Shown here: piece by piece, positions 23,372-26,728 of the stretch
How the letters are laid out: each line of letters starts with the position of its first letter
Numbering within the stretch: the stretch's first letter is position 1
NCBI RefSeq assembly: GCF_000733725.1
Contig: NZ_JMQM01000001.1
Location: forward strand, 1,736,001-1,800,000
DNA: 64,000 nt
From: Nitratireductor basaltis
GTDB taxonomy: Bacteria; Pseudomonadota; Alphaproteobacteria; Rhizobiales; Rhizobiaceae
Reading direction: 5' to 3'
Notes under the pieces: generated by a model
Told to the model about the DNA's origin: nothing
Seen by the model: the letters and a program-made list of their open reading frames with translations, nothing else
Databases searched by the model: none
Translations under genes and position numbers: made by a program

Positions 23372-23448
23372 CGGAGTGTAGCGCAGCCTGGTAGCGCACC
23401 TCGTTCGGGACGAGGGGGTCGCAGGTTCGAATCCTGCCACTCCGACCA
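23372..23448 (+). tRNA. tRNA-Pro (anticodon CGG)
   Basis: 77 bases including an encoded CCA. The acceptor stem CGGAGTG pairs with CACTCCG, the anticodon loop TTCGGGA reads CGG, and the T arm is GCAGGTTCGAATCCTGC. It lies between betB and an AT-rich gene, a typical position for insertion of foreign DNA. I found no second copy of its 3' end within the window. Confidence 0.95.
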
Positions 23449-23478: not shown

Positions 23479-23967
23479 TTGGATACTTTCGACCTCCCCC
23501 CCTCGATAGCTGAGTTGGTCCGTGCTCGGAACCTTCTGCGGGATGCCTTCGATAACATACTTCCCTTCACGTTTGACGGGAAACTCGTAGGAGACCTTGG
23601 TGAAGCCCTTGCGGTGCAGCTATATGGTATCACACTGCTAAATGGAAATACCCGCGGTGTCGACGGAATAAGCCCAGATGGTCGTCTAGTTCAAATAAAA
23701 GCCACCTCTACAGGGCGTGGTCCGGCTTTTACTTACACTGAATTACACAATGAAGCACAGCATCTACTATTTTTGGAGCTTCGACTGGATGATTGTAAGG
23801 GGGAGGTAGTATACAACGGCCCAGAGAGCATCGTGAGGAGTTATCTTCCATCAAGTTGGGCTAATCAACGCGCATTGTCTGCGCCACAGATCAGGCGAGC
23901 AAATTCGGAAGTACATAGCCACCAGCGCTTACTTCGTGTAGACCTTCCTGACGGAGCTGTCAGATAG
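23479..23967 (+). CDS. AT-rich nuclease-like protein (DUF6998-like)
   Basis: 162 aa if started at TTG 23479. No ATG or ribosome binding site lies between the in-frame stop at 23449 and this codon, so the start is uncertain. Residues 34-80 contain the order G-D-L-G-E42, then V-D62-G, then Q72-I-K74. This resembles the E...D...(E/Q)xK layout of PD-(D/E)xK nucleases. I associate it with the DUF6998 family, from memory. Base composition is visibly AT-richer and codon choice differs from its neighbours, and it sits directly behind tRNA-Pro, so acquisition by transfer is likely. Function unproven. Confidence 0.6.
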
Positions 23968-24027
23968 AGGACCATAGCTATCTGTTCAACTTAGCACCAC
24001 CATTCCCCCTTGCCTCCCATCCATAAT

Positions 24028-24042
24028 GTTCTATATTTGTTC
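24028..24042 (+). promoter_or_regulatory. LexA (SOS) box of alphaproteobacterial type
   Basis: GTTC-TATATTT-GTTC matches the GTTC-N7-GTTC direct repeat bound by LexA in Rhizobiales and other alphaproteobacteria. It ends 2 bases before the ATG of the radical SAM gene, so bound LexA would block the start region. It implies induction by DNA damage. Confidence 0.8.
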
Positions 24043-24044
24043 TC

Positions 24045-25274
24045 ATGAAGAGAACACTCAAGGACAAGCTCGCCATCCTTGCGGATGCGGCGAAATATGA
24101 TGCTTCCTGTGCGTCTTCGGGGACTTCGCGGCGCGATTCTTCGAAGGGCGGGATTGGCAGTGCGGGCGGGACCGGGATCTGTCATGCCTATACGCCGGAC
24201 GGGCGCTGCATCAGCCTGTTGAAGATCCTGATGACGAATTTTTGCATCTTCGACTGCGCCTATTGCATCAACCGGGTTTCGAGCAGCGTCGAGCGGGCGC
24301 GGTTTACGCCGGAAGAGGTGGTGACGCTGACGCTGGAATTTTATCGCCGCAACTATATCGAAGGGCTGTTCCTGTCGTCGGGCATCATCCGCAGCGCCGA
24401 TGACACCATGAGCGACATGGTGCGGATTGCGCGCATGCTGCGCGAGGACCACCAGTTCAAGGGCTACATTCACCTCAAGACCATTCCCGAGGCGAGCGAG
24501 GAGCTGATTGCCGAAGCCGGGCTTTATGCCGACCGCATGTCAATCAATGTGGAGCTGCCGCGCGATGACAGTACGCGCCTTCTCGCCCCGCAGAAAAAGC
24601 CCGAAACCATCCGTTCCGCCATGGCGGGCGTGCGCCAGCGGCTCGATGCCGCCAAGGAGCGCAGCCATTCGGGCCGCAAGGCCAAGCGCTTTGCGCCCGC
24701 CGGCCAGTCGACGCAGATGATTGTGGGGGCGGATGGTGCCAATGACCGCGACATTCTCACCACCTCCTCGCGGCTTTATGCGGGCTACAAGCTGCGCCGC
24801 GTCTATTACTCCGCCTTCTCGCCCATTCCCGATGCCTCCAAGGCCCTGCCGCTCATCAAACCGCCCCTGATGCGCGAGCACCGGCTTTACCAGGCCGACT
24901 GGCTGTTGCGCTTCTACGGCTTCGAGGTGGATGAGCTGGCAAGTGTCGCGCCTTCGGGCAATCTCGACCTTGCCATCGACCCCAAGCTTGCCTGGGCGCT
25001 GGCCAACCGCGCGCTCTTTCCTGTGGATGTGAACCAGGCCAGCCGAGAGCTCTTGCTGCGTATCCCAGGCTTCGGCACGCGCACGGTGGATCGCATCATC
25101 GCCGCCCGGCGTTCGGGCATTTTGCGTTATGGCGATCTGGTGCGCATCGGCGCAGTCATGAGCAAGGCCAAGCCTTTCGTGCAGTTTCCCGACTGGTCGC
25201 CGGGCGGGCTGACCGACAGCGCCAATCTGCGCGCGCGGTTCACGCCGCAGCCGGAGCAGCTGGTGCTGCTTTGA
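24045..25274 (+). CDS. Putative DNA modification/repair radical SAM protein
   Basis: 409 aa. The radical SAM cluster motif C67-x3-C71-x2-C74 lies in TNFCIFDCAYCINR. The C-terminal part has a helix-hairpin-helix (LLLRIPGFGTRTVDRIIAARR), which suggests DNA contact. This family is consistently found next to UdgX/DUF4130 genes and is named a putative DNA modification/repair protein; its reaction is not known. Its stop overlaps the next ATG (TGATG), and a LexA box lies just before its start, so it leads an SOS operon. Confidence 0.88.
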   Translation: MKRTLKDKLAILADAAKYDASCASSGTSRRDSSKGGIGSAGGTGICHAYTPDGRCISLLKILMTNFCIFDCAYCINRVSSSVERARFTPEEVVTLTLEFYRRNYIEGLFLSSGIIRSADDTMSDMVRIARMLREDHQFKGYIHLKTIPEASEELIAEAGLYADRMSINVELPRDDSTRLLAPQKKPETIRSAMAGVRQRLDAAKERSHSGRKAKRFAPAGQSTQMIVGADGANDRDILTTSSRLYAGYKLRRVYYSAFSPIPDASKALPLIKPPLMREHRLYQADWLLRFYGFEVDELASVAPSGNLDLAIDPKLAWALANRALFPVDVNQASRELLLRIPGFGTRTVDRIIAARRSGILRYGDLVRIGAVMSKAKPFVQFPDWSPGGLTDSANLRARFTPQPEQLVLL

Positions 25275-26728
25275 TGTATCGCGTGGATCTGCCCGCGACC
25301 GGATTTTTCGAAGCGTGGCGGTCGGCCGCCCGGCGGCTCGCCAGTCACGCTGTCGCGCCTGAGATGGTGCAGTGGTGTCGCGGTGCCGGGGCCGACCTGT
25401 TCGAAGCCGCACCGCCACCCGATAAGGAGGGCCCGCACAAGGTCTCCGCGCCTGCCTCCTTCCTGCAACTTGCAGAAACGGTTCTGTGCCACCGCGATGG
25501 CGAGGCGCCTGCAGCACTTTACGCAGCCCTTGTTCGCCATCAGCAAGACAGGGGCGCGCTTTTAAATCCGGCCGATCTACTCACCCGCAAGCTTCAGGCC
25601 TTCGCCAAGACAATCCGTCGCGACATTCACAAGATGCATGCTTTCGTACGTTTTCGCGAATTGCCGAGCGACAGCGCGCGGCGACGCTTTGGCGCCTGGT
25701 TCGAGCCGGACCACCTCATCCTGGAAGCCGGAACACCCTTTTTTGCCAAGCGCTTCGGTGACATGGACTGGATGATCGCCACGCCGGAGGGTGTCGCGCG
25801 GTTCGAAGAGGGTGCGCTGACCTATCATCCGCCGACCACGCGGCCCGACCTGCCTCATGACGCTTCCGAAGAGCTTTGGGGCACCTATTTCGCCAATATC
25901 TTCAATCCCGCGCGCATCCATCTTCAGGCCATGCGCTCGGAGATGCCGAAGAAATATTGGAAGAACATGCCTGAAACGCAGCTCATCCCCGAAATGCTCG
26001 CGCATGCGGAAACGCGCGTGGAAAACATGCGGAAGGCAATGCCAGCCGAAGGCCCCAAGCGGGCCGAACGCATTCTCGACCGGCTGCGCACGCCCGAACC
26101 TCCCGCCATGCCGGAGACGCTTGAAGCCGCCCGCGAAGCTGCCGCCGCCTGCAGGCGCTGCGGCCTTTGCGAAGCGGCAACGCAGACCGTTTTCGGTGAA
26201 GGGCCGGAAGATGCGCGGCTGATGATCGTCGGCGAACAGCCCGGAGACATGGAGGATCTTGCAGGTCGCCCCTTTGTCGGACCGGCGGGCACGCTTCTGC
26301 GGGAGGTCATGGATGAAGTGGGCACAAAGCCCGCCTGGATGACCAATGCGGTGAAGCACTTCAAGTTCAAGACGCAGGGCAAGAAGCGCCTGCACCAGAG
26401 CCCCAACCGCCACGAGATCGAACATTGCCGCTGGTGGCTCGATCTGGAGCGCAAATTTTTAAAGCCCGGCCTCACACTCGCACTGGGTGCCTCCGCGGCT
26501 TTCGCCCTGACGGGCAATGCCAGCGCCATGACCCCGCGCCGCGGCAAGATCGAAACGGCTCGAGACGGCACCCCCGTCCTCATCACCTGGCACCCCAGCT
26601 TCATCCTGCGTATACCCCGCGAAGAACAGCCCCTCCGGCGACGGGAACTTGCCGACGATCTGAGACGGGCGGAGGATTTTCTTCGTCAGGCAGGCGGCGA
26701 AGCCGCGCCATCCGCCCTTGTCACATGA
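25274..26728 (+). CDS. DUF4130 - UdgX fusion, uracil-DNA glycosylase superfamily
   Basis: 484 aa. Residues about 1-255 are the DUF4130 domain; about 285-480 form a family 4-like uracil-DNA glycosylase domain. C293, C296 or C299, and C385 can ligate a 4Fe-4S cluster. Motif GEQPGDMEDLAGRPFVG (320-336) and KRLHQSP with H374 are the UdgX signature. In mycobacterial UdgX the equivalent His forms a covalent bond with the uracil site, making a suicide enzyme. The second active-site motif is TWHPSFILR (about 438-446). It is translationally coupled to the radical SAM gene. ATG 25274 is used rather than the TTG one codon earlier. Confidence 0.9.
   Translation: MYRVDLPATGFFEAWRSAARRLASHAVAPEMVQWCRGAGADLFEAAPPPDKEGPHKVSAPASFLQLAETVLCHRDGEAPAALYAALVRHQQDRGALLNPADLLTRKLQAFAKTIRRDIHKMHAFVRFRELPSDSARRRFGAWFEPDHLILEAGTPFFAKRFGDMDWMIATPEGVARFEEGALTYHPPTTRPDLPHDASEELWGTYFANIFNPARIHLQAMRSEMPKKYWKNMPETQLIPEMLAHAETRVENMRKAMPAEGPKRAERILDRLRTPEPPAMPETLEAAREAAAACRRCGLCEAATQTVFGEGPEDARLMIVGEQPGDMEDLAGRPFVGPAGTLLREVMDEVGTKPAWMTNAVKHFKFKTQGKKRLHQSPNRHEIEHCRWWLDLERKFLKPGLTLALGASAAFALTGNASAMTPRRGKIETARDGTPVLITWHPSFILRIPREEQPLRRRELADDLRRAEDFLRQAGGEAAPSALVT

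What the first reader, a model, noticed from the sequence alone, without database searches (positions are those of the whole stretch)
24028..26728. SOS-controlled radical SAM + DUF4130-UdgX operon
A GTTC-N7-GTTC LexA box ends 2 bases before a radical SAM gene that is translationally coupled to a DUF4130-UdgX fusion. UdgX is a suicide glycosylase-like protein that bonds covalently to uracil sites (known for mycobacteria). The radical SAM partner has a helix-hairpin-helix but no known reaction. Damage-induced pairing suggests a dedicated pathway that alters or resolves the UdgX-bound lesion. What DUF4130 and the radical SAM enzyme do is open.
Basis: partly seen in the sequence, partly recalled or inferred. 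Interest (0 to 1): 0.75.

Follow-up and report, generated by a model that had tools for sequence, protein, structure and literature searches.

The report
SOS-controlled radical-SAM/DUF4130-UdgX DNA-repair operon
A two-gene DNA-repair operon very probably is under the cell's DNA-damage switch, as it seems to be in many related bacteria, but the uracil-trapping part is an optional add-on and the chemistry of the other two proteins is still unknown.

Summary
GTTCTATATTTGTTC (24028-24042) ends 2 nt before the ATG of a radical SAM gene (TIGR03916), whose stop overlaps a DUF4130-UdgX gene by 1 nt. One such box is weak evidence (110 in the genome, 102 for the reversed control pattern). Comparison makes it strong: an exact box lies at the same gene start in 156 of 163 alphaproteobacterial loci (control windows 5 of 2,882). 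In 28 operons of other classes the alpha-type box is absent and 24 have the E. coli-type box instead (19 exact); four have neither.

SOS control of this pair, and its link with UDG, were already in print. UdgX cannot be the general reason for the pathway: 30 operons examined lack it, 28 of them keep a LexA-type box, and none of 31 UdgX-less genomes searched has UdgX over the cut-off. Stand-alone UdgX genes seldom carry the box (2 of 19). The SOS-controlled core is the radical SAM enzyme plus DUF4130.

Most likely the core is a radical, DNA-acting repair enzyme with an optional uracil trap. Three extra invariant cysteines suggest a second Fe-S cluster; the confident DUF4130 model has no significant match among solved folds. 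A new member of a known kind, with an open and testable reaction.

The parts
24028..24042 (+). LexA (SOS) box GTTC-N7-GTTC
   Evidence: same position in 156 of 163 alphaproteobacterial loci against 5 of 2,882 control windows
24010..24037 (+). possible sigma-70-like promoter, TTGCCT - 16 nt - TATATT, whose -10 lies inside the LexA box; a start just downstream would give a (nearly) leaderless mRNA. Weak on its own
   Evidence: 1 found, 0.9 expected in shuffles; TANNNT within 3 nt of the box in 71 of 155 loci against 7 of 155 control stretches, and the box ends 2 nt before ATG in 46 of 155
24045..25274 (+). radical SAM gene, 409 aa, TIGR03916 rSAM_link_UDG, with C-terminal helix-hairpin-helix
   Evidence: structure model pLDDT 84.5; radical SAM folds best in PDB
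24243..24266 (+). codons of C67-x3-C71-x2-C74, the radical SAM [4Fe-4S] motif
   Evidence: invariant in 197 of 197 aligned loci
24108..24209 (+). stretch holding codons of three further invariant cysteines C22, C46 (with H47) and C55; candidate ligands of a second Fe-S cluster (inferred)
   Evidence: C22 in 196 (one gap), C46, H47 and C55 in 197 of 197; 52 of 52 including Bacteroidota, Clostridia and Acinetobacter rows
25274..26728 (+). DUF4130-UdgX fusion gene, 484 aa from ATG 25274, overlapping the stop of gene 1 by 1 nt
25274..25981 (+). DUF4130 / TIGR03915 domain (residues 1-236)
   Evidence: model pLDDT 90.7; no PDB or viral fold match at E <= 0.001, best PDB sequence match E 0.47
25982..26725 (+). 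UdgX domain (TIGR03914, 278.2 bits, cut-off 189.95)
   Evidence: best PDB sequence matches are UdgX-type entries, e.g. 6ajo, E 1.8e-47
26381..26395 (+). R-loop KKRLH with the cross-linking histidine (H374 of gene 2, equivalent to H109 of M. smegmatis UdgX)
   Evidence: alignment; His kept in 158 of 160 operon UdgX domains

Best explanation
This is a LexA-repressed DNA-repair operon. On DNA damage LexA leaves a box that overlaps the likely promoter and nearly touches the start codon (comparative evidence, strong), and both proteins are made together (1-nt overlap, seen). The conserved core is the radical SAM enzyme with its helix-hairpin-helix tail plus DUF4130 (shown by co-occurrence). Inferred: the two form one DNA-acting enzyme. 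DUF4130 and the hairpin motifs hold damaged DNA, and the radical SAM site uses a 5'-deoxyadenosyl radical, probably with a second Fe-S cluster bound by C22, C46 and C55, to reverse or trim a base or sugar lesion. UdgX is a module fused onto DUF4130 and gained or lost repeatedly. Inferred: it removes deoxyuridine near such damage and caps the abasic site covalently, so that the site is not cut while the core works.
For: Box at the same gene start in 156 of 163 alphaproteobacterial loci against 5 of 2,882 controls. In 28 loci of other classes the E. coli-type box takes its place: 19 exact, 24 with up to one mismatch, against 6 and 57 of 955 controls. No alpha-type box was found in those 28 and no exact E. 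coli-type box in the 163. The genome has LexA with an exact box about 50 nt upstream, and exact boxes before ssb, uvrA, an ImuA-like gene and a ligase-associated DNA-damage helicase. Radical SAM and DUF4130 co-occur in 64 of 65 genomes, and the 65th has a truncated DUF4130. UdgX presence changes at least 15 times on a 98-row tree, at least 10 forced by well-supported branches. UdgX catalytic residues are kept: His in 158 of 160, motif A GEQPGD nearly throughout. Six cysteines are invariant apart from one gap. HhH hits; weak sequence matches of the C-terminus to ComEA and RuvA.
Against: No experiment in any call shows DNA binding, radical chemistry or a phenotype. In the window's own order UdgX is almost always present (64 of 65 genomes), so within that group the two look inseparable. 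Four genomes keep DUF4130 (one only a fragment) without the radical SAM gene, with the box still upstream; two of these still have DUF4130 and UdgX in one open frame, so the fusion may have value alone. The second cluster is inferred from invariance only: residues 22-43 are modelled below pLDDT 50. Recurring weak likeness of the DUF4130 model to DHH-type phosphatases (E 0.011 or higher) is not significant. Seven of 163 alphaproteobacterial loci lack an exact box, and four of 28 of other classes have neither box type. recA of this genome has only one-mismatch boxes in the stretch scanned.
Confidence: 0.5

Rival explanations
1. One reading: the radical SAM enzyme and DUF4130 act on the UdgX-DNA cross-link, releasing or altering the bound lesion.
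For: UdgX is fused to DUF4130 and keeps its cross-linking residues. In the window's order 64 of 65 radical SAM genomes have UdgX over the cut-off.
Against: UdgX-less operons with their LexA-type box: 12 of 13 alphaproteobacterial loci and 16 of 17 of other classes; none of 31 genomes searched has UdgX over the cut-off anywhere. UdgX over the cut-off without a radical SAM gene in 25 of 89 genomes (three of these keep DUF4130 or a piece of it). All 20 stand-alone UdgX genes fetched keep the R-loop, 15 of them in genomes without a radical SAM gene over the cut-off, so UdgX manages without the partner.
Confidence: 0.12
2. A SplB-like direct reversal enzyme for UV photoproducts, as PMC3765255 implies by speaking of SplB-like radical SAM photolyases.
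For: SOS control; named so in PMC3765255; radical SAM fold.
Against: Best solved folds are HydE, PFL-activating enzyme, biotin synthase, ThiH, MiaB, RimO, LIAS and viperin; no SplB entry is among the 50 listed of 81 with E <= 0.001. Three extra invariant cysteines and a helix-hairpin-helix tail, which SplB lacks as far as I recall. This genome also has a separate radical SAM gene of the PA0069 family behind its own exact box.
Confidence: 0.15
3. The radical SAM protein is a maturase: it modifies or activates DUF4130 (a protein substrate), and DUF4130 is the actual DNA enzyme.
For: Nearly strict co-occurrence and adjacency; protein- and cofactor-modifying enzymes (PFL-activating enzyme, HydE) among the best folds.
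Against: The helix-hairpin-helix tail points to nucleic acid. DUF4130 persists without the radical SAM gene in four genomes, in three of them with most or all of the domain. The nearly invariant DUF4130 residues are largely aromatic, basic, Pro and acidic; I saw no glycyl-radical motif, but searched for none.
Confidence: 0.15
4. A mutagenesis factor and not a repair enzyme: the pair changes lesions so that translesion polymerases can pass them.
For: PMC3765255 calls DUF4130 a predicted mutagenesis-related enzyme; SOS control fits either.
Against: I recognised no translesion polymerase among the flanking ORFs listed, but ran no family search on them; nothing here tests mutation rates.
Confidence: 0.1

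Closest known systems
TIGR03916/TIGR03915/TIGR03914 gene set (rSAM_link_UDG, SAM_7_link_chp, UDG_fam_dom) of NCBIfam; COG4277 and COG1573 by recall
   Same: The two window proteins match all three models over their cut-offs.
   Different: Nothing in kind; this is one more instance.
SOS-regulated COG1573-COG4277 two-gene operon in Bacteroidetes (PMC8565304), which cites SOS control of a UDG-based system also for Verrucomicrobia and Alphaproteobacteria (C. crescentus, da Rocha 2008)
   Same: Same kind of gene pair under LexA.
   Different: That text calls it a UDG-based base excision system. The survey here puts the SOS box with the radical SAM-DUF4130 core, including operons without UdgX.
UdgX of Mycobacterium smegmatis (PDB 6ajo and others)
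   Same: GEQPGD motif, R-loop with cross-linking His, HPS motif ending in Arg.
   Different: Here it is the C-terminal half of a DUF4130 fusion in an SOS operon.
SplB spore photoproduct lyase
   Same: Radical SAM enzyme linked to SOS (PMC3765255, PMC8565304; passages).
   Different: Not among the best folds listed; extra cysteines and HhH tail.
Methylthiotransferases MiaB/RimO and lipoyl synthase
   Same: Among the structural matches. As recalled, they too carry three cysteines upstream of CxxxCxxC that bind a second cluster.
   Different: Different spacing of those cysteines (recalled); none of them is in the sequence matches listed.

Membership tests
TIGR03916 radical SAM family | score over the curated cut-off | tested here: met
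   583.3 bits, cut-off 343.5
TIGR03916 radical SAM family | CxxxCxxC cluster motif | tested here: met
   C67-C71-C74, invariant in 197 of 197
TIGR03915 / DUF4130 | score over the curated cut-off | tested here: met
   179.4 bits against 112.25; Pfam 120.9 against 27
UdgX | score over the TIGR03914 cut-off | tested here: met
   278.2 bits against 189.95
UdgX | motif A GEQPG, R-loop R107 and H109, motif B HPS | tested here: met
   GEQPGD, KKRLH, HPSFILR in the window protein; signature residues from PMC10359453 (passages)
UdgX | covalent bond with uracil-derived abasic DNA | not testable with these tools
   needs a gel assay
LexA (SOS) regulon, alphaproteobacterial type | GTTC-N7-GTTC box at the gene start, conserved in relatives | tested here: met
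LexA (SOS) regulon, alphaproteobacterial type | genome encodes LexA and has the same box before lexA and other damage-response genes | tested here: met
   lexA; ssb, uvrA, ImuA-like, damage-response helicase; recA only with one-mismatch sites
LexA (SOS) regulon, alphaproteobacterial type | LexA binding and damage induction | not testable with these tools
SplB photolyase | closest solved fold is SplB | tested here: not met
   none among the 50 rows listed of 81 at E <= 0.001
Radical SAM enzymes with a second Fe-S cluster | three or more further invariant cysteines | tested here: met
   C22, C46, C55
Radical SAM enzymes with a second Fe-S cluster | cysteines close together in space / cluster present | tested here: inconclusive
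   residues 22-43 below pLDDT 50; distances were not measured

The most novel reading that the evidence does not exclude
The radical SAM-DUF4130 pair is a new class of direct-reversal DNA repair enzyme: a two-cluster radical SAM protein that works on damaged DNA presented by DUF4130, a fold without a significant match among solved structures. It has been kept under LexA in classes with different LexA boxes, and has recruited the suicidal glycosylase UdgX, gained or lost many times, as an optional cap for uracil sites.
Probability: 0.25. Interest if true: 0.85.

Novelty: new member of a known kind. Interest (0 to 1): 0.45.

Why it matters
The pair is common (65 of 297 genomes of the order, 84 of 398 of the phylum) and DNA damage very likely switches it on, yet I found no report of its reaction. 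Showing that the SOS box goes with the radical SAM-DUF4130 core and not with UdgX tells experimenters which gene to test and against what: lesions other than UdgX adducts. It also gives UdgX, whose physiological role PMC10359453 calls largely unknown (passage), a concrete setting in which to look.

Tried and rejected
Tried and set aside. (1) Judging the box by count alone: 110 in the genome against 102 for the reversed pattern, so it says nothing without position and relatives. (2) SplB kinship: not supported by the fold list. (3) A known fold for DUF4130: none at E <= 0.001 in PDB or viral models; the recurring matches to phosphatases that I recall as DHH-type (E 0.011 or higher, query TM-scores up to 0.31) are not significant. 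(4) A defence-system role: no PADLOC match at E <= 0.01 for either protein. (5) A phage role: of the two Acinetobacter 'phage' records I looked at one, a 240 kb contig with glyS, glyQ and other chromosomal genes around the pair, and read it as mislabelled chromosome; the other 8 phage records are unannotated contigs from faecal samples and one of them (L202) was fetched. (6) Functional papers: searches found none on the radical SAM-DUF4130 pair; the library holds open-licence papers only. (7) PDB comparison by VIA-align was not available.

Rows dropped or not examined. L031 duplicates L008 and was left out of the 163. L106, L111, L132-L159 and L199-L202 are not in the alphaproteobacterial count. 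L108 (named only 'Proteobacteria bacterium') was counted there. 16 further alphaproteobacterial genomes over the cut-off were not fetched. One search kept the best 80 of 587 confirmed loci, so it leans to near relatives. The tree used 98 of 197 rows: all UdgX-less rows, the rows of other classes, the window and every third of the rest; it is a quick tree and warns of long branches among the outgroup. Of 28 stand-alone UdgX copies that I count in the list, 20 were fetched; L262 had no upstream sequence, hence 19. L025 could not be labelled for UdgX. L003 was not among the 31 genomes; its genome (G186) has no UdgX over the cut-off. Those 31 include L111 and L132, which have no LexA-type box. Of 110 exact boxes in the genome, I fetched stretches for 14, picked by eye, plus the lexA one.
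Full report
What is there. The window holds GTTCTATATTTGTTC at 24028-24042, two bases before the ATG (24045) of a 409-residue radical SAM protein. That gene's TGA overlaps the ATG of a 484-residue protein by one base. Protein 1 is TIGR03916 rSAM_link_UDG; protein 2 is TIGR03915/DUF4130 followed by TIGR03914 UdgX. A weak promoter-like pair puts its -10 (TATATT) inside the box (0.9 such pairs expected by chance).

Is the box real? On counts alone it could be chance: 2 in the window against 1.38 expected, and 110 in the genome against 102 for the pattern read backwards. Three facts make it real. First, the genome has a LexA gene with an exact box about 50 nt upstream. Of 14 further exact boxes whose surroundings I fetched, picked by eye from the 110, several precede damage-response genes: ssb and uvrA (within about 150 nt of their starts), an ImuA-like gene (13 nt; 40 bits, below that model's cut-off), a ligase-associated DNA-damage DEXH helicase (6 nt), and a second radical SAM gene of the PA0069 family (74 nt). 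The rest lie by genes I do not recognise as SOS genes, and recA has only one-mismatch sites in the stretch scanned. Second, I collected 163 distinct alphaproteobacterial loci of the radical SAM gene: all 65 over the cut-off among 297 genomes of the order (further stretches), 78 and 20. An exact box, in either orientation, lies in the 270-nt window at the gene start in 156 of 163, against 5 of 2,882 random windows of the same loci. In 155 loci measured, the box ends exactly two bases before the ATG in 46, and a TANNNT hexamer lies within three bases of it in 71 against 7 control stretches. This suggests that LexA sits on the -10 of a nearly leaderless transcript. Third, in 28 loci from other classes of the phylum the alpha-type box is absent from all 28, while the E. 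coli-type CTGT-N8-ACAG is exact in 19 and present with up to one mismatch in 24, against 6 and 57 of 955 control windows; four have neither. No alphaproteobacterial locus of 163 has an exact E. coli-type box there. So clades with different LexA boxes mostly carry their own box on this operon.

Was this known? In kind, yes. PMC8565304 (passages read) reports a two-gene COG1573-COG4277 operon in the SOS network of Bacteroidetes and says that SOS control of a UDG-based excision system was reported for Verrucomicrobia and Alphaproteobacteria, citing Erill 2016 and da Rocha 2008. Neither of those two papers is held, so I have not seen them. [quoted passage not shown] Literature searches for UdgX with radical SAM, DUF4130, and the family names found no functional study of the pair. 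PMC12700426, PMC1839093, PMC6473078 and PMC12907096 (passages) gave context on Caulobacter and Dinoroseobacter; no passage seen names this pair.

What belongs together? In 297 genomes of the order, the radical SAM family is over its cut-off in 65, DUF4130 in 68 and UdgX in 89 (overlaps recounted). 64 of the 65 radical SAM genomes have DUF4130; the other (G186) has a truncated DUF4130. 64 of 65 have UdgX over the cut-off, and 25 of the 89 UdgX genomes have no radical SAM gene over its cut-off (three of these keep DUF4130 or a piece). Elsewhere UdgX is more often missing: 13 of 159 alphaproteobacterial loci with enough downstream sequence and 17 of 28 of other classes lack it. Of these UdgX-less operons, 12 of 13 keep the exact alpha-type box and 16 of 17 keep the E. 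coli-type box (11 exact, 5 with one mismatch). A search of 31 genomes with UdgX-less operons (29 of these 30, plus L108 and L111) found none with UdgX over the cut-off anywhere; weaker matches there look like ordinary UDGs. On a tree of 98 radical SAM proteins, presence of UdgX needs at least 15 changes, 10 of them forced by well-supported branches. In reverse, of 20 stand-alone UdgX genes fetched (19 with upstream sequence), only 2 have an exact box within 600 nt upstream, though all 20 keep the R-loop. So the SOS box goes with the radical SAM-DUF4130 core, and UdgX is an accessory.

Evidence the other way. Four genomes keep DUF4130 without the radical SAM gene, and in all four a box is still there, about 160-220 nt upstream of the DUF4130 match in three and 21 nt in the fourth. 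Two keep DUF4130 and UdgX in one open frame (one of them with a divergent junction), one DUF4130 alone, and one UdgX with a DUF4130 fragment. Within the window's order UdgX is nearly always present. So UdgX, or the fusion, can be worth keeping under LexA by itself.

The UdgX domain looks active. Its best solved relatives include the M. smegmatis UdgX entry 6ajo (E 1.8e-47). It has GEQPGD, KKRLH and HPSFILR, and the cross-linking histidine is kept in 158 of 160 operon UdgX domains, motif A nearly throughout. PMC10359453 and PMC10776899 (passages) give the roles of these residues; the first calls the physiological role largely unknown.

The radical SAM protein. Besides C67-C71-C74, three further cysteines are invariant: C46 and C55 in 197 of 197 and C22 in 196 with one gap, with H47 next to C46. 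They hold also in rows from Bacteroidota, Clostridia and Acinetobacter. Enzymes such as MiaB, RimO and lipoyl synthase, which appear among the structural matches, are recalled to bind a second cluster with three N-terminal cysteines. I infer a second cluster here, but the stretch 22-43 is modelled below pLDDT 50, so geometry was not tested. SplB is not among the 50 matches listed. The C-terminal part resembles helix-hairpin-helix proteins, weakly.

DUF4130. Its model is confident (pLDDT 90.7) but has no match at E <= 0.001 in PDB or in viral models and no PDB sequence match better than E 0.47. Invariant or nearly invariant residues include R116, H119, R126, F127, W142, E144, P145, R160, W166, W202, Y205, R214 and W229. 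They are largely aromatic and basic, which fits DNA or lesion binding, but that is inference.

Mechanism. I commit to a SOS-induced, DNA-acting radical enzyme made of the radical SAM protein and DUF4130, with UdgX as an optional cap for uracil sites. Shown by comparison: the conserved boxes, the coupling in this window, the near-obligate core and the optional UdgX. Inferred: LexA binding itself, complex formation, DNA as substrate, the second cluster and the kind of lesion.

History of this copy. In the sampled tree the window protein groups with three Paracoccus or same-family proteins (SH-aLRT 99), and its closest named records are an Afifella MAG contig (81 percent) and a Paracoccus albus plasmid (81.7 percent). 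Same-genus copies are 66-72 percent identical in DNA over the main aligned pieces, and 8 of 16 genomes of the genus, the own one included, have the family over its cut-off. 158 records of the plasmid collection carry a relative, although some of these, such as a 4.09 Mb Acinetobacter record, are probably chromosomes. The operon therefore seems to move between alphaproteobacteria.

Noticed in passing
23372-23448 and 23479-23967: A tRNA-Pro gene is followed by a low-G+C (about 0.50) DUF6998 gene with weak likeness to type II methyl-directed restriction enzymes and to a phage family, just upstream of the operon. This looks like an insertion hot spot, and the operon itself is closer to Paracoccus copies than to same-genus ones.
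   Followed up: partly
L106, L133, L134, L135 (upstream of the radical SAM gene): The Xanthomonas operon and three close to it have neither LexA box type but share a palindrome GTCTCA-N5-TGAGAC that begins 48-51 nt upstream of the first matched codon (one mismatch in L133). It may be the site of another LexA-like repressor.
   Followed up: partly
L195, L196, L197, L198: Four genomes lack the radical SAM gene but keep the LexA box upstream of what remains: DUF4130 plus UdgX in two, DUF4130 alone in one, UdgX with a DUF4130 fragment in one.
   Followed up: partly
L201 (CAKLQH020000003.1); a second such record was not opened: A record filed as 'Acinetobacter phage MD-2021a' is a 240 kb contig that carries glyS, glyQ and other chromosomal genes around the pair; it looks like mislabelled bacterial chromosome.
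   Followed up: partly
L235 (own genome, C1:1857703 box): A second radical SAM gene, PA0069 family, starts 74 nt after its own exact GTTC-N7-GTTC box in the same genome.
   Followed up: no
L041 and L077, upstream of the radical SAM gene: Two loci carry two exact LexA boxes each, which might mean tighter repression.
   Followed up: no
L249, L250, L251: Three same-family genomes without the radical SAM gene keep a stand-alone UdgX that scores over 320 bits against the operon-UdgX profile and may be left over from a decayed fusion operon.
   Followed up: no
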